DNA of 64,000 nt from a virus, in the IMG/VR virus record IMGVR_UViG_3300031576_000012, positions 1 to 64,000 of that record; one strand, written 5' to 3'. The notes below the pieces were generated by a model that ran no database searches, had not been told where the DNA came from, and saw only the letters and a program-made list of their open reading frames with translations. Shown here one piece after another: positions 4,511 through 42,938 of the stretch. How positions within the stretch are numbered: the stretch's first letter is position 1; every line of letters begins with the position of its first letter. The translations under genes were made by a program, and so were the position numbers.

Positions 4511-6726
4511 TCTTTAGTCTCCGATAATCGGTCTGCAATTATAGGTTCAGCCACCAAAGGAAGACTAAGCTTGTAGTTATTCTCCATGATATCTTTCATG
4601 ATAACTGCTACTTGTTCTGCTTGATCTTCTCTAGCTTCCACAACAATTTCATCGTGAATTTGAATCAACACGTAAGCATCCAAGTTTAATTCTTTGAACT
4701 TCCTTCTCATAGCTATCATTGCTCTACTTACAATACTAGCAGCCGTTCCTTGAATTTTAAAGTTAATACTTAAATTCAATAGCTTATTTACTAGTAGCTG
4801 ATCTGATCTTACCCTAGATTTGAGTAATTTGTCAATCCCTACAAAGCGTCTAACTCTTCCTGTCTCTGTTTTAACGTAACCAAGTTTCATGGCTTCCCCA
4901 TGACAACGGTTAACGAATTTATACAGATTAGGTAATCCTTTCCAGTACTTATCAATCTTTTCTTGGGCCTCATCAAGTTCGCACTGAAGGGTATGCCCTA
5001 GCTTCCACTTCTTCATGCCGTAGGCTACCCCAAGGGCAATAGCCTTAGCTTCTTGCCTGATGTCTCCTGCCCCGTCTGCCTTCATTGTATTGGGGTTTCC
5101 TTTGTAGTCCATACAAAGTACCGCAATAGTGCCATAGAAGTCATCTCCACGGTAATAGGCGTCTATTAGAGCCTTTTCCTGGCTGTAATGGGCAAATACC
5201 CTTGGCTCTAGCTGAGAGTAGTCAGGACCGATAAGCTTATACCCTGGTCTAGCAATAATCCCCTGTTTAATCCTCTTATCTTCTCGTGGAAGATTCTGGA
5301 AGTTAGGTTCCCTACAAGAAAATCTTCCTGAGTCTGTTCCATGCTGAAGCCATCGTGGGCGTACTATACCTTCTTTTTGAGAGGTAAGAATACCATCTAC
5401 ATAAGTACTTACTAACTTAATGATCTTTCGTCTTTGCGAGACTTTAGCAACAAAGCTATAACTTTTAGCAAAGTGATCTAAAACCTCATCATCTACTTGA
5501 GCATTGTTCTTATCTGTGACCTTCATAGGTGTTTCACCTAAGCGATTAAAGAGAAGGTCTTTAAGTTGATCATTGCTGCTTAAGTTAATAACATATTTAG
5601 ACTTTCCAAGTTCTAGATACATCTCTTGACGTGTTGTAAATAAAAGATCTGCGTATAGTTTTTCTAATTCTGTTTGTTGAATTAGCCCCATTTTCCATTG
5701 AAGTAATACATTCTCTGGGTGTGTTTTAAACTCAGCCTCTATAACCTTTTTAACAAAAGAAGTTTCTCCTTTTTTATCATAATAAAGAGTTAATCCTGAA
5801 TTTATATAAAGTTGTTCAAACAGCAATCCTCTACTTTTTAATGGATAAGCTTCTGTTAATAGTTCATTTTCTAAAGCTTCATAATGTTTTAAATAGTTTT
5901 TCTTAAGCTCTTCATGAGCTTCTTTTTCAAGTTGGTCTGCTTCCGCTGTAAGTGTCTTTTTAAGGTCTTCAAAATAAGGGATATCACACATTACCCCTCT
6001 TCCAATCATATGATCAATAACAACCTCATTAAGAGGCATTACCTCATCAGTATAAAAGAAATTAACTAGCCCTTGTATTTCAAGTTCGGTGTGCATTACT
6101 CCAAAAATCTTAGCGGTTAAATCTACGTCTGCACATGCATACTTCCCTAAAATATCTAAGTCTGCCATGTAAATGTCTTTGTGGTCTTTGTTCCATTTAC
6201 CACCATTATGTATTACGGAAGCTTTTAATTCTTCTTGTTCATCTTTGGCTTCCTCCCCAAAGATTAGAACAGCTATATCTTTTAGCCCATGCGGTCTACG
6301 TTCATCAAGTGTGTGTTTGAGAAGCATGGTATCTGCATAAAGATTCTTTAGGCAATCAGCTCCGATAGTTTGTTTAATAACTTGCACATCGAACGGGCTG
6401 TTATGCATAATTAGTTTAGCTTTGGAGTGTTCTAGTAACTCAATCAATCCTGTACGCAAAAGAAACGCTCTATGATCATCAATAGTATCTAGTCTTGTAT
6501 TAGTGATCTTATTTTGTTCATCCCTTTCAACAGTGTAATTGTGCATGGGGAAGTAAACGGCTTCTCCCTCTGCTGGACTAATAGAAATCCCCATAAGCTT
6601 ACAACTAAGAGTATCAAGAGAGTTAGTCTCGGTATCAACAGCTAAAAATCCAACATTTCTTTTTAAAATGTCTAGATAGTTAGTTTGATCTTCAAGGGTA
6701 TAAGCTATGTAATAGTTCTTAGTCAT
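4507..6726 (-). CDS. Family A DNA polymerase with 3'-5' exonuclease
   Basis: Replicative DNA polymerase, 739 residues. The exonuclease domain starts with DTETNSLD at 31-38 and continues with HNSPFDVQV near 108 and a later YACADVDLT. The polymerase domain has motif A DYSQLEPR (catalytic D502), motif B RQEAKAIALGVAYG (557-570) and motif C HDE (691-693). No 5'-nuclease domain is present, as in T7-type and many phage enzymes. The stop of the primase-helicase overlaps its start, so the two are probably co-translated and act at the same fork. Confidence 0.97.
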   Translation of the reverse strand: MTKNYYIAYTLEDQTNYLDILKRNVGFLAVDTETNSLDTLSCKLMGISISPAEGEAVYFPMHNYTVERDEQNKITNTRLDTIDDHRAFLLRTGLIELLEHSKAKLIMHNSPFDVQVIKQTIGADCLKNLYADTMLLKHTLDERRPHGLKDIAVLIFGEEAKDEQEELKASVIHNGGKWNKDHKDIYMADLDILGKYACADVDLTAKIFGVMHTELEIQGLVNFFYTDEVMPLNEVVIDHMIGRGVMCDIPYFEDLKKTLTAEADQLEKEAHEELKKNYLKHYEALENELLTEAYPLKSRGLLFEQLYINSGLTLYYDKKGETSFVKKVIEAEFKTHPENVLLQWKMGLIQQTELEKLYADLLFTTRQEMYLELGKSKYVINLSSNDQLKDLLFNRLGETPMKVTDKNNAQVDDEVLDHFAKSYSFVAKVSQRRKIIKLVSTYVDGILTSQKEGIVRPRWLQHGTDSGRFSCREPNFQNLPREDKRIKQGIIARPGYKLIGPDYSQLEPRVFAHYSQEKALIDAYYRGDDFYGTIAVLCMDYKGNPNTMKADGAGDIRQEAKAIALGVAYGMKKWKLGHTLQCELDEAQEKIDKYWKGLPNLYKFVNRCHGEAMKLGYVKTETGRVRRFVGIDKLLKSRVRSDQLLVNKLLNLSINFKIQGTAASIVSRAMIAMRRKFKELNLDAYVLIQIHDEIVVEAREDQAEQVAVIMKDIMENNYKLSLPLVAEPIIADRLSETKE

Positions 6727-8716
6727 CTTTATGTTCTAACTGTTTCCTTAGTCCCGCCAATTCCATTTGTTCTTCTTGTACTAAATCTCTTACAATACCA
6801 GAGGCTCCATGAAAGAACAAATCAATTGTTCCTGTATCCCCCATACGATTTTTAAACATCTTTATGCCCATGATATAATCATAGTCTGGATGAGAGTCTT
6901 TAAAAGGACGGAAACAATTTACTTGAGTGGAAGCTTTTTCTTCCCAAGCTCCTGAGCCTTTGGCTAATATCATTTCATCATTAACATTGTTTCTACTGGT
7001 TTGTGATAGCCCTAGAATACAAATATTCTTATTCTTAGATAGTTCTGCTAAAGAGTGAGCATTGAAAGTATCATTAGCAAAACCTAAATAGTCAGATTTA
7101 ATTAGCTGGACATAATCAATAATTACTAACTTGACCTTCCTACCCCACATGTTTTCTTGTCGGTCAATTTCCGCACCAATGTCTTTTACGGTCATATGAG
7201 TTTGAGAACTGATAAGCACGTTCTCTGAGACCTTTTCAAATGCTTCTAAAGACTTACTCATAAGCCCTTCATCATTTCGTGCATGGCCTTCCATGAACTG
7301 CTTACCACTAATGATCTGCTCTTTAATATCTTCAGCTAGAAGAATGGGGGCACATCTTTGGATAAGCATCTCTTGGCTCATATCCATATTAAAAAACAAT
7401 GCAGGGATATTCCCTTTGCTTGCATTATTCATGATGTTGAGCATAAAACTAGTTTTACCAGTACCAGGCTTACCCACAATTAAATTAAATGTACCTAAGT
7501 AAAGAGGCATCCTCTCATCAATAGTAGTAAACCCCGTCTGTACAACATTGGAGTGATAACCTTTATACCAAGACTTAGAACGCTTGTAAGCATCTAGTAG
7601 GGTAATAACGTCGGCCTTTGATTCTTCAAATTTCTTGGGTGCTAAATGACATTTCCTGCTGCATACAGCATCAAGTACAAAGTCATTACAACCATAATCA
7701 TAGTCGTTCTTAAATACTTGTGAAACAATGGTGTCGATCTCTGGCTCAAGAATTGGGTCCATTTGAGCCTTCTTAGGGTCTCTAGCATTCATTAAGTCTA
7801 ACACACCAAGAAGTTTAGCTTTAACTACTGCTTGTGGCATACCAGTCTTACGCTCATGGTCAGCAATCCTCAATAGAGCATTGTTTCTACCTTCAACGTA
7901 GTCACCTTGGCATAACCTCCAAATACATGTCTTAAACATTCTTGGGGCATTACGGTCATCTGTTAGCCCTTCAGAAGTTATAGAAGGAAGACTAATAAGT
8001 TTTCGGCTTACTGTTTCAACTTCCACCATAGACTTACTAAGTAGGTCTGATAGCTTAGATGCATCCGATAATATGTCAAATAGATGAGGTATTCGTATTT
8101 GTACAGCAAAGCGTTTAATTTCATCAATCGTTGAATTTCTCAACATAGGGACTGATAGACTAGTTTTAAACAGTCTGACTGGACGACCATCAACATCTGA
8201 TTCTTTATCATGTAAAGTACCGGCTATTCTGTATAACCTAATATGGTTGTATATTCCTTTGTCAACCGTTTTTAGATCACCAGCAATTGCTAAACAGATC
8301 TTCTTTACATATAAAGGAGTGTTTTCACTTAAGGCTCCATCTAAGCCAACTATACCCTTAGTTCGTATTTCAACCGCAAAACCTTTTCTACCACTAAAGA
8401 ACACACCAATTTCATTCTCTTTTACACTATAATCAGCAATAAGCCTATCAATTAGTGTAACAGCATCTTGTCGTGATAATTCAAGTTCTACGTTATCGAA
8501 ATCCCATACAAGGTATTCAACTCCAGACTTGCCTTTAAATCCTTTTACTGATCCAGTTTCAGTTACATGCTTAAGCATTTCCTCTGTGTAGTGGAAAAGC
8601 CCTCGGTAACTATCTTTATAAGGATCAATATTTTCATACAGCTTGTCGAGAAGAACTACCTTATTTCTAAGGGAACTAGATCTCAATTCCTCACGGAATT
8701 CGATATACAAACTCAT
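6719..8716 (-). CDS. Primase-helicase fusion (AEP primase + DnaB-type helicase)
   Basis: About 665 residues. The N-terminal third looks like an archaeo-eukaryotic primase domain: WDFD as the acidic motif, FSGRKGFAVEI in the place of the SG-x-x-G-x-H motif, and RLYRIAGTLHDK, typical of that superfamily. A cysteine cluster (GCNDFVLDAVCSRKCHL) follows. The C-terminal third is a RecA-fold replicative helicase with Walker A VGKPGTGKTS and Walker B VIIDYVQL. ATG at 8716 is preferred (GAGG four bases upstream); a TTG five codons earlier lacks a ribosome site. The usual motif-II histidine appears to be alanine. Confidence 0.88.
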   Translation of the reverse strand: MSLYIEFREELRSSSLRNKVVLLDKLYENIDPYKDSYRGLFHYTEEMLKHVTETGSVKGFKGKSGVEYLVWDFDNVELELSRQDAVTLIDRLIADYSVKENEIGVFFSGRKGFAVEIRTKGIVGLDGALSENTPLYVKKICLAIAGDLKTVDKGIYNHIRLYRIAGTLHDKESDVDGRPVRLFKTSLSVPMLRNSTIDEIKRFAVQIRIPHLFDILSDASKLSDLLSKSMVEVETVSRKLISLPSITSEGLTDDRNAPRMFKTCIWRLCQGDYVEGRNNALLRIADHERKTGMPQAVVKAKLLGVLDLMNARDPKKAQMDPILEPEIDTIVSQVFKNDYDYGCNDFVLDAVCSRKCHLAPKKFEESKADVITLLDAYKRSKSWYKGYHSNVVQTGFTTIDERMPLYLGTFNLIVGKPGTGKTSFMLNIMNNASKGNIPALFFNMDMSQEMLIQRCAPILLAEDIKEQIISGKQFMEGHARNDEGLMSKSLEAFEKVSENVLISSQTHMTVKDIGAEIDRQENMWGRKVKLVIIDYVQLIKSDYLGFANDTFNAHSLAELSKNKNICILGLSQTSRNNVNDEMILAKGSGAWEEKASTQVNCFRPFKDSHPDYDYIMGIKMFKNRMGDTGTIDLFFHGASGIVRDLVQEEQMELAGLRKQLEHKDD

Positions 8717-8731
8717 AGAACCTCGGTTCAA

Positions 8732-8989
8732 CTATTCTTTGAAATAAACTACAATGACGCCATCTGGGGAATTTTCCTTCTTCTTTTCCTTCACTGGGTA
8801 AAGGACCACATTTGCTTCGGTAGAAAGGTTTAGCAATCCACCTGAAGCCTTGTGACGAAGAAGAACCTCAAATTCATCTTGGGGTCGTTTTCCAGTAAAT
8901 GCTACTGACTGATTATTACCCTTTGTACTTGAGTTATTCCAGAAAGAACCAATAATCTTTGATTCACTTGGTTTTCTATTCTGTTCCAT
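8732..8989 (-). CDS. Small protein in replication cluster, unknown
   Basis: 85 residues, polar N-terminus then a compact beta-rich part (LLNLSTEANVVLYPVKEK). A GAGGAG site precedes the ATG. It overlaps the 3' end of the upstream gene and directly precedes the primase-helicase; a small replication accessory protein is possible but not shown. Confidence 0.75.
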   Translation of the reverse strand: MEQNRKPSESKIIGSFWNNSSTKGNNQSVAFTGKRPQDEFEVLLRHKASGGLLNLSTEANVVLYPVKEKKKENSPDGVIVVYFKE

Positions 8990-10153: not shown

Positions 10154-11250
10154 TATTTATTCTCCTCATTTTTAAATATATATTTACTCTTATCCCCGAA
10201 ATGGCACAAGTGATAGTAATCACAAAGTCCATAATTTTTACATGCGTTTAAATTTTTAATTCTTAGTCCTTGATTCATAACACTTGCTAAAGTGGAAAAC
10301 CCGTTCATAAAATCATTTTGCCTATCTTTAGAGATTCTGTCAACAAGTATTTGAACCTTGGCTTCTGGTATCTCATCCCACTCACCTTTACATCTTACCC
10401 CATTTACATCATTATTACAAGTCCTATGTGTACTATCCTTTAGGTACCCACACTTAGAACATAGAGCTTTTCCATCCATTTGTTTCAATAGAACTATATA
10501 ACCGGCTAAATCTGTTCCTACTTCGTCCCCTACTGCTGCTGTATATAGTGTCAGTTGCTCTGCTAAAAAGATAGAGTCTGCATCATAATAAGAGGCAGAA
10601 GTCTTTAAATCAATGATAATAGGCTTATCATATCCTTCAAGTTCTGCTATAAGATCAATATACCCAACAACATCTACTCCTTCTGCTGTTTTTCCTTCAA
10701 TCTTATGTTGAATAGCAATTACCTTTTTAATTTTGGGGAGCACATCTCTTACAAATGCTTCAAGCATTAGAAGTCCCTTATTCTTAAGGGAAATCCAACA
10801 AAGCTTATTAAACATTAAGAATTCATTCTCCTTGAGTGGTTTGTGTTCTTTTTGTTTTTCAGCTTTAATGGCATCTTCTGCTTTAACTTCTAGCTCTCTT
10901 TCCCAACTAGACACAAAGAGTTTATCTTCTGAGGATCTAATAACTACTGAATCATAATCCTTTTGTCGGTACCTCATATTAAGATCATTAACAGCTAGAT
11001 TCCAACCTTTTTCAGCATGATTAAGAAATACATCCTTGTATCCTTTTAATCCTTCTTCCCTAGTTCCATTTTGTACATTGGTTAACAGAAACGCAATGGA
11101 AGTATCAATGGCGATACCAAAACCTAAACTAGAACCCATTTCAATAGGCTTTACACGTTCAATATATCTTAAGTAGTGTTTTTCTTGGCACTCCTTCCAG
11201 GCTTGTGCAGCCGAGTGCGAGACATAAGTTGGCAATTTAATATTACTCAT
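10153..11250 (-). CDS. RecB/Cas4-like PD-(D/E)XK nuclease
   Basis: 365 residues. The nuclease core reads GYIDLIAEL followed by PIIIDLKTS, giving the D...(D/E)xK triad, and QLTLYTAAV after it is typical of the PDDEXK_1 family. A single cysteine (AWKECQ) near the N-terminus plus three near the C-terminus (CKNYGLCDYYHLC) match the layout of a 4Fe-4S cluster in Cas4/AddB nucleases. A zinc-ribbon-like insert (CSKCGYLKDSTHRTC) is also present. It probably resects DNA ends for the neighbouring ERF protein. Confidence 0.87.
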   Translation of the reverse strand: MSNIKLPTYVSHSAAQAWKECQEKHYLRYIERVKPIEMGSSLGFGIAIDTSIAFLLTNVQNGTREEGLKGYKDVFLNHAEKGWNLAVNDLNMRYRQKDYDSVVIRSSEDKLFVSSWERELEVKAEDAIKAEKQKEHKPLKENEFLMFNKLCWISLKNKGLLMLEAFVRDVLPKIKKVIAIQHKIEGKTAEGVDVVGYIDLIAELEGYDKPIIIDLKTSASYYDADSIFLAEQLTLYTAAVGDEVGTDLAGYIVLLKQMDGKALCSKCGYLKDSTHRTCNNDVNGVRCKGEWDEIPEAKVQILVDRISKDRQNDFMNGFSTLASVMNQGLRIKNLNACKNYGLCDYYHLCHFGDKSKYIFKNEENK

Positions 11251-11704
11251 TTAAGTACCTAATAGCCTTTGTTAAGATTTTAATATTATCAAAAAACTTA
11301 CCCAATCCCACATTACAGTTATCACAAAGAAGTCCTCTAATTATACCAGTTTTATGATTATGGTCAACTGCAAAACGTTTATGTTCATACGGCATTCTTA
11401 AACAGATAGCACATTTTCCTTTTTGTTTATTAAGCATACCATCATATGAACCATAAGGCAAATCAAAAGTATATTTTAAGTGTCTATCTTTATATCTATT
11501 CTTATTTTTAGCTATATATCCTTTAAACCATTCTTTTTTCTTAGCCTTGTTTTTAGGATCTGCCCAATATTTTTTCATGTATTGACTGTGACATTCTTTA
11601 CATATAGATCTAATTTTAGAATTATCTTTTCTAAGATAGAAAGAAGAAGCTTTCTTAGACAAGTTGCAAGATTTACATTGTCTATATGTAGGTAGTTTAG
11701 TCAT
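11243..11704 (-). CDS. Endonuclease VII-type HNH nuclease (copy 1)
   Basis: 153 residues. Two N-terminal CxxC pairs (C10/C13 and C35/C38), then C98/C101, DHNH at 114-117 and CDNCN at 127-131, followed by the conserved glycine-phenylalanine stretch. This is the recombination endonuclease VII layout. Family members include both Holliday-junction resolvases and free-standing homing nucleases. It overlaps both flanking genes by 8 bases and has a paralogue at 12875-13333, which favours mobility over an essential resolvase role. Confidence 0.87.
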   Translation of the reverse strand: MTKLPTYRQCKSCNLSKKASSFYLRKDNSKIRSICKECHSQYMKKYWADPKNKAKKKEWFKGYIAKNKNRYKDRHLKYTFDLPYGSYDGMLNKQKGKCAICLRMPYEHKRFAVDHNHKTGIIRGLLCDNCNVGLGKFFDNIKILTKAIRYLNE

Positions 11705-12861: not shown

Positions 12862-12890
12862 ATTATACCACATTTTAGCCCTCCCTGCAA
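12862..12890 (-). promoter_or_regulatory. Extended -10 promoter abutting a ribosome site
   Basis: TTGCAG, 17 bases, then TGGTATAAT. The -10 hexamer ends one base before AGGAG, so a transcript begun here would start only about four bases before the ATG at 12851. Confidence 0.6.
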
Positions 12891-13333
12891 GGTTTTTTAA
12901 GATATCTAGCAGCTTTTCTAAGTAATTTAGGGTTATCTTGGAAGAATCCAATCCCTCTGTTACAATTACTACACAAAAGACCTCTAATTCTATTAGAGAT
13001 ATGATCGTGATCTACAGCTAATGCTATCTTCATATCTTTTTGTTTTAGTGGACAAATCTTGCATTTACCTCTTTGTTTAAACAAAAGATATTTATATTGT
13101 TGAATAGTAATCCCATATCTAGTTTTTAATACACCAGATTGGATAGAAGTGCCAAATTCTTGTCTATATTTCTTCTTATATTCTAACAACTTAAGTCTAT
13201 TGTTTATTCTATATTTTTTACTTCGATCTGCTTCACATAATATACATTCGGATCTTAGTTTGTCAGAAGAAAACTTACTATTATAGAAACTAGTTAAATA
13301 TTTAATTTCTTTACATTTAGTACATTTTTTCAT
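12875..13333 (-). CDS. Endonuclease VII-type HNH nuclease (copy 2)
   Basis: 152 residues, paralogous in layout to the protein at 11243-11704: C4/C7, C30/C33, C91/C94, DHDH at 108-111 and C121/C124. Zinc-binding HNH nuclease of the endonuclease VII family. Its ribosome site (AAGG) lies within the 3' strand of a predicted closing helix of a 120-base structured element just upstream, which could limit its translation. Insertion at a gene junction suggests a mobile gene. Confidence 0.87.
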   Translation of the reverse strand: MKKCTKCKEIKYLTSFYNSKFSSDKLRSECILCEADRSKKYRINNRLKLLEYKKKYRQEFGTSIQSGVLKTRYGITIQQYKYLLFKQRGKCKICPLKQKDMKIALAVDHDHISNRIRGLLCSNCNRGIGFFQDNPKLLRKAARYLKKPCREG

Positions 13334-13466: not shown

Positions 13467-13540
13467 TGGTAGCGGGGCTGGGAATTGCACCCAGGACTTA
13501 AGCTTATGAGGCTTACGTTTTACTACTTCACTACCCCGCA
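13467..13540 (-). tRNA. tRNA-Met (CAU), atypical, perhaps initiator-like
   Basis: 74 bases with encoded CCA. The acceptor pairs GCGGGG with CCCCGC, with an unpaired U1-U72. The anticodon stem TAAGC/GCTTA holds loop CTCATAA with anticodon CAU. The T-stem is CTGGG/CCCAG. The unpaired 1-72 and the loop identical to E. coli initiator tRNA suggest an initiator type, but the three G-C pairs of initiator anticodon stems are missing. The T-loop reads TGCAATT (G at 55) and the D-arm is poor with no GG, so it may be degenerate. A tRNA-Ile decoding AUA is another possibility. Confidence 0.75.
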
Positions 13541-13546
13541 ATAATC

Positions 13547-13576
13547 ATTCTACCGACATTTCTTACGTACTGTCAA
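13547..13576 (-). promoter_or_regulatory. Promoter for the tRNA-Met transcript
   Basis: TTGACA, 18 bases, TAGAAT. The -10 ends seven bases before the first base of the tRNA, so transcription would start almost at the tRNA 5' end. Confidence 0.6.
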
Positions 13577-13825
13577 TAATTTATGTTTTAAAATTAAAGA
13601 TAATCCTTCAACTGGTATAATCTCTTGTCTAAACTTAGGATACAGACTCTTCTTTGTAGAAATCCAATATATAAGCTCTTCAGGGCTACAATCCATTGCT
13701 CTTGCCCCTACATCCTCTGCTTTTTTAACAGCATGGATAGTTCCTTCTTGGAATCCCATCTCAGCTTCCCCTACTGCTCCTGGTTTAGCCAAATAACTAA
13801 ACAATACTTTGTCCCCTTTTTTCAT
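13550..13825 (-). CDS. Hypothetical protein
   Basis: 91 residues; begins MKKGDKVLFSYLAKPG, suggesting a small beta-barrel start, then a basic C-terminus. Not recognised. Its ATGA overlaps the stop of the cupin gene. Its 3' end contains the -35 region of the tRNA-Met promoter. Confidence 0.7.
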   Translation of the reverse strand: MKKGDKVLFSYLAKPGAVGEAEMGFQEGTIHAVKKAEDVGARAMDCSPEELIYWISTKKSLYPKFRQEIIPVEGLSLILKHKLLTVRKKCR

Positions 13826-14373
13826 CCCATTCCTACATTCTCTTTATTTGGACCTTCAGGAATATTTAAAAACTTTCTCCAATGTGTCCAAGCCCATTCA
13901 GCTGAGTGAGGCGCAGGAGACCAAAATCCCCATTCCCTTTTCTTCTTTCCTAAGACAACAAATGTCAAAGGCCCTTGATCTGCTGTATCTAATGTAAGAT
14001 GCTTATCGAGTATAACTCTGTGAATATGTTCAGCTTTTCTAAACAACAGATCCCCTGGTTTAGCTGATACTGTAGTGGTAATCCAGTAGTACCTTGTATT
14101 CTTAGCGTAGAAGTCTTTACGTAAGATGTTATCTTTGTATCCACCTTCTAAGATGTAAGTAAAGAAAGGCCAAGGATGATCATGGTATGTATCATCATCA
14201 GACCTAAGAAAGCGATGAAGGTATATACCAAACCAACGTGTTTTAGCAACAACATAACGAATCATATAAACGTCTATGTCGTTTTTCTCTCTGCCCGTAA
14301 TATGAAACACTTGGTTCTTCTTTATTGCTCTTTTCATTAACCAAGCTGCTAATAGTCTCATTAACTTCAGCAT
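13822..14373 (-). CDS. Cupin-like protein
   Basis: 183 residues with a cupin-type double pattern: HDHPWPFFTYILEGGY, then KPGDLLFRKAEHIHRV and a final VVLGKKKREWGF. The histidines in HDHP and EHIH would bind one metal ion in a beta-barrel. Proteins like this are widespread in phages without a known substrate; sugar or oxygenase-like chemistry cannot be told apart here. A GGAAG site precedes the ATG. Confidence 0.75.
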   Translation of the reverse strand: MLKLMRLLAAWLMKRAIKKNQVFHITGREKNDIDVYMIRYVVAKTRWFGIYLHRFLRSDDDTYHDHPWPFFTYILEGGYKDNILRKDFYAKNTRYYWITTTVSAKPGDLLFRKAEHIHRVILDKHLTLDTADQGPLTFVVLGKKKREWGFWSPAPHSAEWAWTHWRKFLNIPEGPNKENVGMG

Positions 14374-14503: not shown

Positions 14504-14533
14504 ACTATACCTTTTCTTTAACTTCTGTGTCAA
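14504..14533 (-). promoter_or_regulatory. Promoter inside the interrupted gene's second half
   Basis: TTGACA, 18 bases, TATAGT on the minus strand, overlapping the last codons of the frame that continues after the TAG at 14607. It would transcribe toward the cupin gene. Confidence 0.5.
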
Positions 14534-14606
14534 CTTCTTTTTTATACTCTTCGGATAGCTCTTCCTGTTCCTCTTCAAATGGAACATGGTTAAGCAAAGA
14601 CTTCCT

Positions 14607-14732
14607 CTAATCATCTGTTAACTGTAGTTCATCTAAAAGTTCAGGTGGCACGTTCATAAGCTCCTCCAAAGTCATATCTGCAACCCATTGACCTCTATAT
14701 TTATGTCCTAAGATAGCATTATAATCAGCCAT
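14607..14732 (-). CDS. Small protein ending at an amber codon with open frame beyond
   Basis: 41 residues from MADYNAILGHKYRGQ; the ATG directly follows the nrdJ stop (TAAATG). The TAG at 14607-14609 is followed in the same frame by 33 more sense codons, down to a second TAG at 14505, coding a glutamate/lysine-rich acidic helix (EEEQEELSEEYKKEVD). This may be one 75-residue gene split by a nonsense codon, an amber-readthrough protein, or two genes: AGAGG just after the TAG precedes a TTG that could restart translation. Function unknown. Confidence 0.6.
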   Translation of the reverse strand: MADYNAILGHKYRGQWVADMTLEELMNVPPELLDELQLTDD

Positions 14733-16604
14733 TTAAATCTCGCATTTATCTCCAGAACATGCTAACGCTTGCGCTCCTGTTGTCGAGTCTTCAAGTTCAT
14801 ATTTGGAGAGTTGTTTATAATCAATCTCAGGGAAGGCTTTCCTTGCCTTTTCATATTCCTCTTCTGTGATCTCCTCGTAAGGAGCCAGCTGATAATGACC
14901 ACCATCATAAGGAAGAAAGGAAACGCCGATAATATCATCAAAATTTCTAAAAACATAAGCTCCTACCTCTGCCCATTCATGGTCGTTAACATATATTGTA
15001 CAAGACTGGTTGTGTTCACACCAGCTATTTTGAATCTTTTTATACCACTCTAACTGTTCAATGGCACTCATTTTATCCCTAGTAATACAATTCTTAGGTG
15101 CTTTTACAGGGAATGTTGCTACCCATGTATCAGGATTATCTTTATCCTGCCCTACTTCGGGTTCACAGGGCACCCCTTGGGTTCGTAGCATTTTGAAGAG
15201 GGGATCTGTTGAGGAAATCCGTACTCGTCTGTAGTAATAACGTGCGTATCTTGGATGACAGCCTGAAGCTGCGTCAACCAACTGGCTAACGGTACCACTA
15301 GGCTTCCCAGTAGTAATAGAAGTACTGAGATTAATCCCAAGACTTGAAGAGGCTTTTTTAGCTGTTTTAATTGCATAATCTTTTAATATCTCTAATTTCT
15401 CTTCAGTTAATAGTTTAGGATTATCAAGTTGCCCCGTTAAAGACACACCTAATAATCTTTCTTCTTCACAATTCTTTTTCCACTCAGCTCTAATATATTT
15501 AAAATTAGTGTAAGTAGATTGGATAGCTCCAATCCATACAGCTACTCTAACTTTATTAATTAGATCATCAAAAGAATCTGTGGATCTAATAACAACTTCA
15601 CTCAGATTACAAAATTCATATGGTCTAAGAAGAATCTCACCACAAGGATTGCTTCTTTCTTGTCCAGTAAACTTACGTCTTGGAGCATACTCAGCTAATT
15701 TAGAGATATTATAGATACCTCTTTCACCTGTACCTGAAGCCGCTAGGTTAAACCATTCTCTTAGAAAGGTAACACTACTAGGCTTAAATTTAAACACTGC
15801 TGAGTTATTACTCATGTATCTAATAGTAGGCATAGGATGATTCTTAGCTTTCATTAAAAGCTCGTCTTCTAGGTCACTAAAAGAAATAAGACTTGACCGT
15901 CTTACTCCTCCCACTACTACAATTTCTGCAATCTTACAACAAATGTCATGGCACTCTAGGCTTGTTAGTCTTCTTCCTTGAGCACCAAGGATAATCTTCT
16001 TCACAAACTTATGAAGACTAATAAGTGGATCTGGACCAGAGGCTCTTCCTCCCATTGTCTCTAACCTAGCTCCTCTTAGCCTTACTTTTGTGTAATCAAA
16101 TTCAATATCTAGTCCTTTGAACAGATTGTCCAGGCTTATTCGTAAAGATTCAGCCCAACCTTCTTTAGAATCTTGAACTACATGTACCCCAGCTCCATCG
16201 CTAGTTTGTAGTTTAACTTCAGGAAGCTGAGAGATATACTCATTCTCTACAGAAAATCCTACTCCTGTTCCGCACATAAGAATGTATAGAAGCTCTGAAA
16301 AAGAGAACAAATCTTTAATAGGTAGATACGAGCAATTATAGCTTGCAACGTTGTTATAAGACATTGCATAGCCAGCACTCCACATAGCTCTCATAGAGGG
16401 CATTACGCCCATTTCTAAGATTTGCTTTTCAATTTCATGTCTAATTTTTTTTGATAGCTTAGTTTGAAGAGGTAATACTGTATTTTTAATATACCTTGTA
16501 ACTGTTTCCTCCCAAGTTTCTCTCCTCTTTTTAGAGGGAATCCAACGAGAATAAGTTCGATAAAAAACAAACTCTGATAGTTCGTTTCGGAAAGGATCAG
16601 TCAC
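14733..16604 (-). CDS. nrdJ: Class II (adenosylcobalamin) ribonucleotide reductase
   Basis: 623 residues, related to the monomeric B12-dependent ribonucleoside triphosphate reductase. Landmarks: YNCSYLP (C91), MCGTGVGFSVE, NPCGEI with C321 and E323, CNLSEV with C332, and a C-terminal CSGDKC pair (C616, C621) that would re-reduce the active site. These give the redox pair, the thiyl cysteine and the shuttle cysteines. It makes dNTP precursors independently of oxygen but needs cobalamin from the host. GTG start, preceded by GGAG. Shorter than the 739-residue Lactobacillus enzyme. Confidence 0.92.
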   Translation of the reverse strand: MTDPFRNELSEFVFYRTYSRWIPSKKRRETWEETVTRYIKNTVLPLQTKLSKKIRHEIEKQILEMGVMPSMRAMWSAGYAMSYNNVASYNCSYLPIKDLFSFSELLYILMCGTGVGFSVENEYISQLPEVKLQTSDGAGVHVVQDSKEGWAESLRISLDNLFKGLDIEFDYTKVRLRGARLETMGGRASGPDPLISLHKFVKKIILGAQGRRLTSLECHDICCKIAEIVVVGGVRRSSLISFSDLEDELLMKAKNHPMPTIRYMSNNSAVFKFKPSSVTFLREWFNLAASGTGERGIYNISKLAEYAPRRKFTGQERSNPCGEILLRPYEFCNLSEVVIRSTDSFDDLINKVRVAVWIGAIQSTYTNFKYIRAEWKKNCEEERLLGVSLTGQLDNPKLLTEEKLEILKDYAIKTAKKASSSLGINLSTSITTGKPSGTVSQLVDAASGCHPRYARYYYRRVRISSTDPLFKMLRTQGVPCEPEVGQDKDNPDTWVATFPVKAPKNCITRDKMSAIEQLEWYKKIQNSWCEHNQSCTIYVNDHEWAEVGAYVFRNFDDIIGVSFLPYDGGHYQLAPYEEITEEEYEKARKAFPEIDYKQLSKYELEDSTTGAQALACSGDKCEI

Positions 16605-16621: not shown

Positions 16622-16804
16622 TTAATACGTTTCGTCTTCTTCTACTACTTCATCTTCATCGCTTAATGACTTAAGAATATCTTGAGTTTCTTGACGTTTA
16701 ATCTCTTCACTCAATCTTTCTTCAAGATAATAGACTACTTCTTCTACATTTTCCATAGTCTCTATCTCGTCAATAAGTTCTTCTAGTAATCTAGTTGTAT
16801 TCAT
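16622..16804 (-). CDS. Small acidic protein
   Basis: 60 residues, very rich in Glu/Asp, two helices then an acidic tail (SDEDEVVEEDETY). Not recognised; could be a partner or inhibitor of a neighbouring protein. It overlaps the end of the upstream regulator by four bases. Confidence 0.7.
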   Translation of the reverse strand: MNTTRLLEELIDEIETMENVEEVVYYLEERLSEEIKRQETQDILKSLSDEDEVVEEDETY

Positions 16805-17484
16805 ACCTCTTCCTGTTCTATCTCTGTAAATTTCATTATTAACTTCTTTGCTTTCTTCAGTCTATAATACGCTGAACTTACATTCTCGTCAATCTTTTTT
16901 ATTTCCTCAATTGTTTTAAAGTTACAATAGTATTGTACCAGAATGTCTCTGTAAATAGTAGATAAAAATCTACCAAACTTCTTTAATAGTCTTTGATACT
17001 CTGCAAATTCTCTAAGTTTTTCTAAAGCTCCGTCTCTTTTTTTGTCTCCCTGAATTGCAGTAAATATAGTTGCTGCTGGGATATTCTGTTCTTTAGAAAT
17101 CTCTTCATAGCTCTTTCCAAATAAAAAATGTTCTTTAATAATCATCTTGTCACGTTCAGATATAGCACCCCAAGGAATATCATTCATAGTTAGTTTATCT
17201 CTTTCTATAGTAACACATGCTTCATTTTGCATATGTTGATAAGAAAATATATCTTCCATCTTTGGAGATAAACTAAACGGAACAGTTGGGAGTGTCTTTT
17301 TATTCCCTCGTTCTATATAAGCTCTCATTTGTGGACAGAGTTTTGTACATGAGTCTCTAATTTCGCAAACTGCACAAGGGGTTACTAATTCACATATACC
17401 ATCTGCATCGGCACAAGGTTGTCTTTTAGGACAATGTGTACATACATCCTGTCTATATTGAATTTTAAATACTTTCTCATTCAA
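16801..17484 (-). CDS. Cysteine-rich HTH protein, sigma-factor-like regulator
   Basis: 227 residues. The first 50 contain eight cysteines (15, 18, 24, 31, 37, 40, 46, 50), enough for two zinc sites or iron-sulfur clusters. Residues about 105-150 look like sigma region 4: SERDKMIIKEHFLFGKSYEEISKEQNIPAATIF. A second HTH-like unit follows (TIEEIKKIDENVSSAYYRLKKAKK). Likely a DNA-binding transcription regulator, possibly redox- or metal-sensing; it might be a phage sigma-like factor. No -10-melting region 2 is seen. Confidence 0.6.
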   Translation of the reverse strand: MNEKVFKIQYRQDVCTHCPKRQPCADADGICELVTPCAVCEIRDSCTKLCPQMRAYIERGNKKTLPTVPFSLSPKMEDIFSYQHMQNEACVTIERDKLTMNDIPWGAISERDKMIIKEHFLFGKSYEEISKEQNIPAATIFTAIQGDKKRDGALEKLREFAEYQRLLKKFGRFLSTIYRDILVQYYCNFKTIEEIKKIDENVSSAYYRLKKAKKLIMKFTEIEQEEV

Positions 17485-18692: not shown

Positions 18693-19387
18693 CCTTTTGC
18701 TTCTAATGCTGAAATGGCTATTGGACATACATTCTTTTCCTTAACACAGTTTAACATAAGTTTAGCCACATGTCTAATTTCTGGTTGAGCATGATCTGAA
18801 TTACGAAGTTTCTGATAATTAGCAAAGCTTCTTAGATTGAAGATAGTTGTACGTTCTGTCATTCCACCTGTAGGTACTACTCCTCTTGCTATTTCTCTAA
18901 CACGCTTGTACTCTTTATTAGTAATAATACCAGCATCTTGAGCCTGTTTAGAAAAGTAGATCATGTCATTATATGCTGCAATAGCTGCATCATGCATGAA
19001 TTCTAAATTGTTGGTAAGTTGATTTGAGATAGGAGGACTAACTGTTTCTACTCTCTTCATCATCTCTTTCACATCATCTGGGATGCTGTAATAATCACTT
19101 GGCAATGTTCTATATCTTCCTGATAATCCATTATGAGATGCGATGCGGTGTGTTACAACTTGTCTATCTGTGAAGATAGGAATACGCATCCAAAACTTGA
19201 AAATTACAGATTCAAACGGGGTACCATGACTACCATTTGCCATTAGGTTAATAACTCTCTTAACCTCTTCTTCAGTTCTGTTTTGTTTTTTGTCTTGATC
19301 TAAGCTGCTAGTCCATGCAGTTTCAGCTATACCTCTGTCTGAACCCATCGTGTCAATCAACTGAACCTGTATTTGCTCAAACCCCAT
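18680..19387 (-). CDS. thyX: FAD-dependent thymidylate synthase
   Basis: 235 residues. The ThyX signature appears as VVTHRIASHNGLSGRYR near residue 77-93, a variant in which the first Arg of RHR is Thr, and SFANYQKLRNSDHAQPEIR follows near the C-terminal third, the flavin/dUMP-binding segment. Converts dUMP to dTMP with FAD and methylenetetrahydrofolate. Together with nrdJ, the deaminase and dNMP kinase it completes a dTTP route. Confidence 0.92.
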   Translation of the reverse strand: MGFEQIQVQLIDTMGSDRGIAETAWTSSLDQDKKQNRTEEEVKRVINLMANGSHGTPFESVIFKFWMRIPIFTDRQVVTHRIASHNGLSGRYRTLPSDYYSIPDDVKEMMKRVETVSPPISNQLTNNLEFMHDAAIAAYNDMIYFSKQAQDAGIITNKEYKRVREIARGVVPTGGMTERTTIFNLRSFANYQKLRNSDHAQPEIRHVAKLMLNCVKEKNVCPIAISALEAKGWVI

Positions 19388-19814
19388 AATAATACCCCTC
19401 TAGAATTTCTTTAAACCTTTTTGTTTTTAAATATGCCCCATTTTTGAATTCAATAGCACCTATTTTTATTAAAAAGTATCCTATCTCGTGTAAGGAAGTA
19501 TGGGCTTGTCTATGTTTAGAATGATTTTCACAAAGAAATAAGTTATCAATTTTATTATTAAGTTTGTCTCCATCAATATGATGAATGGTTTCTTTTTTAA
19601 GAAGTTTTCTTCCTAAATGTTTCTCTATTACAACTCTATGTTCTCTTTCATAAACAGACCAAGGGGATTTAACATTAATTCTATCTCTAATAGTTACTAA
19701 TCTATAACCATCACTACTAATGTAAGAACCACCTTTCCAATTAGGAGACTTTGAACCTAGTTGGTCTTTTCTTTGAATTCCTTTGGGATTAGCATTTTTA
19801 TGTTCTTTTGCCAT
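19377..19814 (-). CDS. HNH homing-type endonuclease
   Basis: 145 residues: a basic N-terminus with SPNWKGGSYISSDGY, then YEREHRVVIEKHLGR and HHIDGDKLNN with later CENH, the HNH_3 layout of free-standing phage homing endonucleases. It overlaps thyX by 11 bases, and AAAGGACAAC precedes the ATG. A folded intergenic element lies upstream. Mobility inferred. Confidence 0.87.
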   Translation of the reverse strand: MAKEHKNANPKGIQRKDQLGSKSPNWKGGSYISSDGYRLVTIRDRINVKSPWSVYEREHRVVIEKHLGRKLLKKETIHHIDGDKLNNKIDNLFLCENHSKHRQAHTSLHEIGYFLIKIGAIEFKNGAYLKTKRFKEILEGYYYGV

Positions 19815-19831
19815 GTTGTCCTTTAAAAAAT

Positions 19832-19898
19832 GGAGAGCCTAACAGCAAGCACTACATTTCTGTAGCCTGGGTCTTTCGAGGTCTCTGGTCTACTCTCC
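19832..19898 (-). ncRNA. Predicted structured leader of the HNH gene
   Basis: Closed by GGAGAGT (5') and GCTCTCC (3'), 67 bases, with an internal 5-bp hairpin CTACA-GAAA-TGTAG carrying a GNRA tetraloop. An alternative pairing GGTCTA/TAGACC, reaching 19912, would break the closing helix, as in a two-state switch. It ends 17 bases before the HNH ATG. I cannot match it to a known riboswitch or tRNA. Confidence 0.4.
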
Positions 19899-19931
19899 TG
19901 CTACTATAGACCTTTTTTCGCAGTTTTTCCT

Positions 19932-20132
19932 TTAGGAAGCTGTGACGTTTGAAGCTTGGGCACCTTTAGCGCCTTGAGTCACTTCGTACTCAACTGCATC
20001 ACCCTCTCGTAGGGTCTTAAAACCTTCTCCGCTGATTCCTGTGTGGTGAACGAATACATCTTTACCGTCTTCGCCTGTAATAAATCCGAAGCCTTTTTTC
20101 TCGTTAAACCACTTTACTGTTCCTTTATTCAC
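19932..20132 (-). CDS. Cold shock domain protein
   Basis: 66 residues, the full CspA fold: [15 protein letters not shown] with RNP1 (KGFGFI) and RNP2 (DVFVHHT). Binds single-stranded RNA or DNA and acts as an RNA chaperone. GTG start, with AGGAG six bases upstream. Overlaps the end of the upstream gene by eight bases. Confidence 0.93.
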
Positions 20133-23753: not shown

Positions 23754-23828
23754 TGGCTCCGAGCCTACGATTCGAACGTAGAACTTACGCTTTAACAGAG
23801 CGCCGTGATACCATTTCACCAGCTCGGA
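23754..23828 (-). tRNA. tRNA-Asn (GUU)
   Basis: 75 bases with encoded CCA. Acceptor TCCGAGC/GCTCGGA, D-stem GTGA/TCAC with GG in the loop, anticodon stem GCGCT/AGCGT (C-G mismatch-free apart from one wobble) with loop CTGTTAA and anticodon GTT, T-stem TACG extended by the standard loop TTCGAAT. All arms are canonical, unlike the Met tRNA. It lies between two genes of the minus-strand operon. Confidence 0.93.
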
Positions 23829-25965: not shown

Positions 25966-26571
25966 CTATTTTATGCCTAGCACTTCTAGTTTGTCAAGAA
26001 TAACCAAACCTGCGATATTAAAATCTTGCCCTACTTTTGCTAATAGTTTCGCGGTGTTATAGGCATCAGCTAAAGCCCTATGTTGTTTACCATATAGGGG
26101 ATCAAACTCAAGCCCCCAAGCCAGTAACATACCCCCTAGCCCGTTAGAAGGTTTCTTCCCTGTAAGAGCATTAATAAAGGTCATAGCACTTTTGGCTTCG
26201 AAGAACTTACGTCTAAAGTTGTATTGAACTAGGTTAACATCCAAGTATTTTTGAAGGTAAGGGATATCTGCTCCCCACGCACCTAATACGATATTCTTTG
26301 TTTTCTTGGTAGCCCACAATTCAAAGTCATACATGACCTCAATTAAACATCTTCCCTTGCTATCCATTTCTTCTTGAGTAATCCCTGTAAGCTCAATGAT
26401 CTCTTGTTGAAGAGGCTTAGATACAGTAATTAGGGCAGTGAAGGGAACTGGGTCAATTGTTCCATCTCGGTTAAACCTAACTGCTCCTAGTTCAATAATC
26501 TCTTCTTTTGTAGGATCATTGGGGTAGTTAATCTCAAGATCAAGGACAATAACGTCATAAGGTAATTTCAT
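25966..26571 (-). CDS. DEDDh-type 3'-5' exonuclease
   Basis: 201 residues. IVLDLEINYP supplies the first D-x-E pair (D11, E13), LGAWGADIPYL a second acidic position, and HRALADAYNTAKLL the final HxAxxD. Closest in style to Eri-1/RNase T-like or DnaQ exonucleases; RNA or DNA substrate cannot be told. Overlaps the Pth2 gene by four bases. Confidence 0.82.
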   Translation of the reverse strand: MKLPYDVIVLDLEINYPNDPTKEEIIELGAVRFNRDGTIDPVPFTALITVSKPLQQEIIELTGITQEEMDSKGRCLIEVMYDFELWATKKTKNIVLGAWGADIPYLQKYLDVNLVQYNFRRKFFEAKSAMTFINALTGKKPSNGLGGMLLAWGLEFDPLYGKQHRALADAYNTAKLLAKVGQDFNIAGLVILDKLEVLGIK

Positions 26572-35843: not shown

Positions 35844-36179
35844 TTAAGTATAATCCATCCATGAACCTGTGTCAAGTTGTCTATTGTTCAAGAATTCCGC
35901 ATACTTAACCCTATATTGCATAGACAAAGGGGTATTCAAAGTGAAGTCAGGGGTACTACTATATCTTGAGGTAGTAACAGACTCAAAGGTCTCCATAGTG
36001 AGCATAAAAGTCTCATCTTGGGGTACATTTGTCACCTTATTTTCTAGGAACTTAAACTTAATCATAGCTCTACTTTTCCCAATGGTTAAAGCGTCCAGCT
36101 CGACAAATACGTCTTCAATAACTGCTGTTCGACCATCTTTTACGTCATACACCGTTCCTATTAGCCTATTCTTCATCAT
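35844..36179 (-). CDS. Hypothetical protein
   Basis: 111 residues, beta-rich first two thirds. Not recognised. GGGAG precedes the double ATG. Confidence 0.7.
   Translation of the reverse strand: MMKNRLIGTVYDVKDGRTAVIEDVFVELDALTIGKSRAMIKFKFLENKVTNVPQDETFMLTMETFESVTTSRYSSTPDFTLNTPLSMQYRVKYAEFLNNRQLDTGSWMDYT
35847..35875 (-). promoter_or_regulatory. Consensus-like promoter
   Basis: TTGACA, 17 bases, TATACT on the minus strand, at the very end of the gene at 35844-36179 and just before the 49-residue gene. Confidence 0.65.
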
Positions 36180-42765: not shown

Positions 42766-42932
42766 TTACTCATACAATTGTAATCTCTTTTATTTGTATA
42801 CATACTTCTTATTGTATTAATATATTGCATATAAATTAATTATAATCTACATAAATATTGTATTAACATAATTGTATCTTGTAAGAATACAATTGTAATT
42901 ATAATATATATTATAACCTTTATCTCAGCCAT
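42766..42932. other. AT-rich non-coding island with repeats
   Basis: About 165 bases of nearly pure A/T with no gene. It holds two exact copies of ATACAATTGTAAT (42772-42784 and 42887-42899) around a 10-base palindrome TACAATTGTA, two copies of ATTGTATTAA (42811 and 42857) and an inverted repeat AATTGTAT/ATACAATT. The layout fits operators between two promoters, or an origin-like region. Confidence 0.5.
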
Positions 42933-42938
42933 TGTCAA
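42910..42938 (-). promoter_or_regulatory. Perfect sigma70-type promoter
   Basis: TTGACA, 17 bases, TATAAT on the minus strand, at the end of the gene at 42935-43255 and facing the AT-rich island. Confidence 0.7.

What the first reader, a model, noticed from the sequence alone, without database searches (positions are those of the whole stretch)
14505..14732. Gene interrupted by in-frame TAG, or amber readthrough
The 41-residue gene after nrdJ stops at TAG (14607-14609), but the same frame stays open for 33 more sense codons that read as an acidic coiled coil, then stops at a second TAG. Two outcomes are visible: suppressed readthrough giving a 75-residue protein, or restart at a TTG that follows AGAGG by six bases. 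A nonsense mutation is a third.
Basis: partly seen in the sequence, partly recalled or inferred. Interest (0 to 1): 0.6.

Follow-up and report, generated by a model that had tools for sequence, protein, structure and literature searches.

The report
Ordinary stop-restart after phage nrdJ
In an uncultured phage a 41-residue gene ends at a normal amber stop and the same reading frame carries on as a short acidic stretch, most likely a second tiny gene restarted at a TTG codon (or the tail of a recently truncated 75-residue gene), and nothing points to a special decoding of the stop.

Summary
On the minus strand a 41-codon ORF follows nrdJ directly, stops at TAG (14609-14607), stays open for 33 more codons, then meets TAG TAG (14507-14502). 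Both halves have the phage's codon usage. Amber readthrough or recoding is not supported: TAG is an ordinary stop here (16 of 118 ORFs; five of seven TAG-ended genes with a homologue in a related phage end within 0-3 residues of it), the 95-kb record has no CTA-anticodon tRNA, and RNA folding around the stop is unremarkable. The TTG restart is plausible: its Shine-Dalgarno is as strong as that of real genes, 9 nt from the stop, and this phage uses a TTG start elsewhere. A nonsense-truncated 75-residue gene therefore stays open. New here: a near-consensus sigma-70 promoter (TTGACA-18-TATAGT, 14533-14504) overlaps the end of the second ORF and its stop, a layout seen at several gene ends in this phage. 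Verdict: probably ordinary tandem small ORFs, possibly a decayed gene; low interest.

The parts
14733..16604 (-). nrdJ: adenosylcobalamin-dependent ribonucleoside-triphosphate reductase, 623 aa, GTG start, TAA stop
   Evidence: Pfam RNR_Alpha, Ribonuc_red_lgC and RNR-II insertion domain; TIGR02505 match below its cut-off; about 50% identical to hundreds of viral contigs
14607..14732 (-). ORF 1: 41 aa, ATG directly after the nrdJ stop (TAA-ATG), ends TAG
   Evidence: codon score +14.0 for the whole ORF, its first 33 codons above 97% of open wrong-frame windows; weak own SD (-3.0 kcal/mol), so probably coupled to nrdJ translation; no homologue found
14604..14608 (-). AGAGG Shine-Dalgarno-like element overlapping the TAG stop, six bases before the TTG
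   Evidence: calculated duplex with anti-SD -6.0 kcal/mol; 63% of the phage's long ATG genes are at least as strong, against 7% of internal TTG codons
14505..14597 (-). ORF 2: 30 aa from TTG (MLNHVPFEEEQEELSEEYKKEVDTEVKEKV), same frame as ORF 1, ends TAG TAG (14507-14502)
   Evidence: frame 14606-14508 has codon score +11.9, above 99% of open wrong-frame windows; no homologue found
14504..14533 (-). sigma-70-like promoter TTGACA-18-TATAGT inside the last codons and stop of ORF 2, 131 nt before the next gene
   Evidence: 11 of 12 consensus bases; 20 such sites in the 95-kb record against about 1.5 per strand expected, several overlapping 3' ends of genes
13822..14373 (-). next gene downstream: 183-aa protein (PHROG 4786, 'cysteine dioxygenase'), probably served by that promoter
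   Evidence: PHROG E = 8e-37; promoter assignment inferred from position

Best explanation
Two tiny, tandem, translationally coupled ORFs at the end of the nrdJ transcription unit of an uncultured tailed phage. Ribosomes leaving nrdJ restart on ORF 1 (TAA-ATG) and end normally at TAG; these ribosomes, or new ones, then start at a TTG nine nucleotides on, guided by an AGAGG element that overlaps the stop, giving a 30-residue acidic peptide. It ends at TAG TAG inside the -10 box of the promoter for the next gene. Shown: the frames, codon usage, Shine-Dalgarno strength, and that TAG is a working stop. Inferred: actual translation from TTG, coupling, promoter activity, and any function of the peptides.
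For: TAG is an ordinary stop: 16 of 118 ORFs use it, and five of seven TAG-ended genes with a homologue in the related 117-kb phage end within 0-3 residues of the homologue. SD of the TTG: -6.0 kcal/mol, typical of real genes and reached by 7% of internal TTGs; a start of that quality within 30 nt after a random stop occurs in 3.3%. TTG starts are used: the gene at 16801-17484 starts with TTG where the relative has an aligned ATG. Short gaps are common: 30 of 110 same-strand pairs lie 0-20 nt apart, 9 in the same frame. Codon usage of the second frame is coding-like. Literature: coupling by termination-reinitiation falls with gap length, by 40-80% at 14 nt in E. coli; a small set of E. coli pairs is spaced around +10 nt (PMC10666635).
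Against: Same frame costs a factor of three under this model; TTG starts are rare (1 of 23 homology-checked starts); a 30-aa gene is very small; no homologue shows ORF 2 as a separate gene; part of its 3' end is also promoter sequence.
Confidence: 0.45

Rival explanations
1. Truncated gene: a 75-residue small protein whose frame was cut by a recent nonsense substitution, or a strain variant in the sampled population; the 3' part is still recognisable because too little time has passed.
For: Both halves have the same coding-like codon usage in the same frame. TAG is one substitution from many sense codons. A single-sequence model of the joined product runs a helix (residues 40-49) across the junction, though at low confidence (pLDDT about 64). 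Nonsense codons between conserved halves of prokaryotic genes are documented, many short-lived (PMC7918605).
Against: The Shine-Dalgarno and TTG just after the stop would have to be coincidence (3.3%). No intact homologue exists in any collection searched.
Confidence: 0.32
2. ORF 1 is the gene; what follows is a purine-rich 3' region with the promoter of the next gene, open by chance.
For: 33 open codons has about 10% chance; a near-consensus promoter occupies the last nine codons and the stop; 15% of ORFs have such extensions, though mostly because a real gene follows.
Against: Codon score above 99% of open wrong-frame windows, and 96% without the promoter part; SD-plus-start at the right place.
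Confidence: 0.15
3. Programmed or leaky amber readthrough giving a 75-residue protein besides the 41-residue one.
For: The frame is open and coding-like beyond the stop.
Against: No CTA-anticodon tRNA in the record; TAG is a normal terminator; no unusual RNA structure (z = -0.97) and no known RNA element; no conservation to support a programmed site.
Confidence: 0.05
4. Sequencing or assembly error at 14607-14609.
For: Single consensus of a metagenome-derived record; reads could not be inspected.
Against: Not a homopolymer; no other long gene in the region is broken.
Confidence: 0.03

Closest known systems
Translational coupling by termination-reinitiation (PMC6728339, PMC10666635, PMC12548453)
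   Same: Stop and next start lie within about 10 nt; an SD-like element overlaps the stop; same strand.
   Different: TTG start, a tiny second ORF and the same frame; no expression data here.
Conserved in-frame stop codons and putative readthrough in prokaryotic genes (PMC7918605)
   Same: A stop lies between two halves with coding character in one frame.
   Different: There orthologues with and without the stop exist; here no homologue at all, so purifying selection cannot be tested.
TAG-recoded phages, genetic code 15 (PMC9523058, PMC7886860)
   Same: In-frame TAG in a phage gene.
   Different: No suppressor tRNA, no TAG inside long genes, and TAG-ended genes whose homologues end at the same place.

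Membership tests
Genetic code 15 (TAG read as Gln) | Suppressor tRNA with CTA anticodon | tested here: not met
   Only tRNA-Met(cat) and tRNA-Asn(gtt) in the 95-kb record; the record may be incomplete and a host tRNA cannot be excluded
Genetic code 15 (TAG read as Gln) | TAG avoided as a stop and present inside conserved genes | tested here: not met
   16 of 118 ORFs end in TAG; five of seven TAG-ended genes with a homologue in the relative end within 0-3 residues of it
Programmed stop-codon readthrough | Homologues keep the stop and the extension, with purifying selection on both | tested here: inconclusive
   No homologues found
Programmed stop-codon readthrough | Stimulatory RNA structure near the stop | tested here: not met
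   Folding z = -0.97 for 121 nt around the stop; no Rfam element at the stop
Termination-reinitiation gene pair | Short stop-to-start distance on one strand | tested here: met
   9 nt between TAG and TTG
Termination-reinitiation gene pair | Credible start codon with ribosome binding site | tested here: met
   SD -6.0 kcal/mol; TTG start used elsewhere in this phage
Termination-reinitiation gene pair | Downstream translation depends on upstream translation | not testable with these tools
   Needs a reporter or ribosome profiling
Pseudogene by nonsense mutation | Intact homologue running through the stop position | tested here: inconclusive

The most novel reading that the evidence does not exclude
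The TAG is a programmed leaky stop that makes a fixed ratio of a 41- and a 75-residue protein from the nrdJ operon of a phage that otherwise uses TAG as a normal terminator.
Probability: 0.05. Interest if true: 0.5.

Novelty: new member of a known kind. Interest (0 to 1): 0.15.

Why it matters
Little, if the best explanation holds: tandem tiny ORFs with stop-restart junctions are routine in phages. It is a worked case of how an in-frame stop between two coding-like halves can be checked without homologues, and it shows that this phage seems to lay promoters over the 3' ends of upstream genes.

Tried and rejected
Recoded TAG: rejected. Overlapping 47-aa ORF in another frame from ATG 14614 (ATGATTAG): rejected, no SD (+0.4) and codon score -7.6. 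Homology by degenerate DNA patterns (D-M-T-x-E-E-L-x3-P-P; P-P-E..L-T..Q-R; G-x-W-V-x-D-M-T): hits are unrelated proteins, or none. PHROG 24693 (E = 0.036) and Pfam YfhD (E = 0.07) matches were weak and came only from the joined product with Gln set at the stop; the PHROG match vanished when the stop was written as X. Small ORFs behind nrdJ in about 80 other viral loci: none similar. Fifteen records with a related portal gene: no match. RNA structure or Rfam element at the stop: none.

Full report
What is there. The window is bases 1-64000 of a 94,996-base virus record, 37% G+C. On the minus strand the B12-dependent ribonucleotide reductase gene nrdJ (14733-16604) is followed without a gap by a 41-codon ORF (ATG 14732, TAG 14609-14607). 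The same frame stays open for 33 codons and then meets TAG TAG (14507-14502).

Is it more than chance? Length alone is not: 33 open codons has about 10% probability from base composition, and 15% of this phage's ORFs of at least 80 aa have at least as long an in-frame extension, usually because the next gene is in the same frame. Codon usage says more. Scored with a codon model from the phage's own ORFs, the first half has +14.0 and the second +11.9; the second exceeds 99% of open windows taken from wrong frames and lies well inside the coding distribution, while its other forward frames score -7.6 and +3.9 (the latter with five stops). Without the nine codons that overlap a promoter it still exceeds 96%.

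Is TAG a stop here? Yes. Sixteen of 118 ORFs end with TAG. Seven of these have homologues in a related 117-kb phage (IMG/VR 3300003154_000002; terminase 63%, portal 72% identical), and in five of the seven the homologues end within 0-3 residues of the aligned end or with at most six residues of difference (four with 1-3 residues left on both sides, one with 0 against 6). Genes also follow TAG stops in frame elsewhere: the primase-helicase begins with an ATG 15 nt after the TAG of the preceding ORF. The record encodes tRNA-Met and tRNA-Asn only. RNA folding around the stop is ordinary (z = -0.97). This removes recoding and leaves no positive evidence for readthrough. Precisely, four of the seven are within 0-3 residues and a fifth within six; where the short fields above say five within 0-3, this sentence is the correct count.

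Is restart credible? The 20 nt before TTG 14597 pair with the anti-Shine-Dalgarno at -6.0 kcal/mol; 63% of the phage's long ATG genes have at least that strength, but only 7% of internal TTG codons. A start codon of that quality within 30 nt after a random stop occurs in 3.3% of cases. The phage uses TTG starts: the gene at 16801-17484 begins with TTG exactly where its homologue has ATG. Thirty of 110 same-strand neighbours lie 0-20 nt apart, nine of them in the same frame. Published work puts coupling by reinitiation at such short distances, with strong decline by 14-38 nt in E. coli (PMC10666635).

Is it a broken gene? The joined product has no relative in 50,697 phage records, 72,556 plasmids, IMG/VR or one genome per species of GTDB, by direct search and by degenerate patterns; neither it nor the halves match PHROGs, Pfam or NCBIfam convincingly; nothing similar lies in the records of relatives or behind nrdJ in about 80 relatives. 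The related 117-kb phage lacks nrdJ and the small ORFs. Under truncation the SD-TTG is a 3% coincidence; under two genes the shared frame (one in three) and the rare TTG (1 of 23 checked starts) are the price. These roughly balance, so I give restart only a modest lead, resting on a judgement of priors rather than on a decisive test.

What was not in the finding. The last nine codons and the stop of the second ORF coincide with TTGACA-18-TATAGT (11 of 12, 14533-14504), 131 nt before the 183-aa gene at 13822-14373. The record has 20 sites of this quality, 18 of them on the minus strand, against about 1.5 expected per strand, and several lie over the last codons of genes (stops at 105, 13550, 25966, 35844, 42935). 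The second ORF's stop lying in a -10 box therefore fits how this phage arranges gene ends, and the end of the extension is probably constrained as DNA, not only as protein.

Verdict. Observation confirmed; readthrough and recoding not supported; restart favoured; nonsense truncation open. Interest is low.

Noticed in passing
window 14504-14533 and others (87-115, 13547-13576, 25968-25997, 35847-35875, 42910-42938): Near-consensus sigma-70 promoters, 18 on the minus strand against about 1.5 expected, several laid over the last codons and stop of the upstream gene.
   Followed up: partly
L163:574-1212 (IMGVR_UViG_3300003154_000002, about 19473-20111): The relative lacks nrdJ, but in the syntenic interval has a free-standing 212-aa protein with a TSCPD domain (Pfam E = 1.7e-9), a domain I know as part of some B12-dependent ribonucleotide reductases.
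   Followed up: partly
L005:4001-6787; G024 and G027 nrdJ (loci L189-L192): nrdJ relatives with about 300 extra residues inside an open frame; L005 has a sub-threshold intein-splicing match (E = 0.009), so probably inteins, at different positions of nrdJ.
   Followed up: partly
window 11243-11704, 12875-13333, 19377-19814: Several free-standing endonuclease genes between phage genes: two endonuclease VII type, one HNH_3.
   Followed up: no
window 6719-8989: An 85-aa ORF ends in TAG and the 670-aa primase-helicase frame continues directly behind it in the same frame; homologues in the relative are separate, so it is two genes.
   Followed up: yes
window 13467-13540: tRNA-Met(cat) gene between the promoter at 13576-13547 and the endonuclease VII gene; the only other tRNA is Asn(gtt) at 23754-23828.
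   Followed up: no
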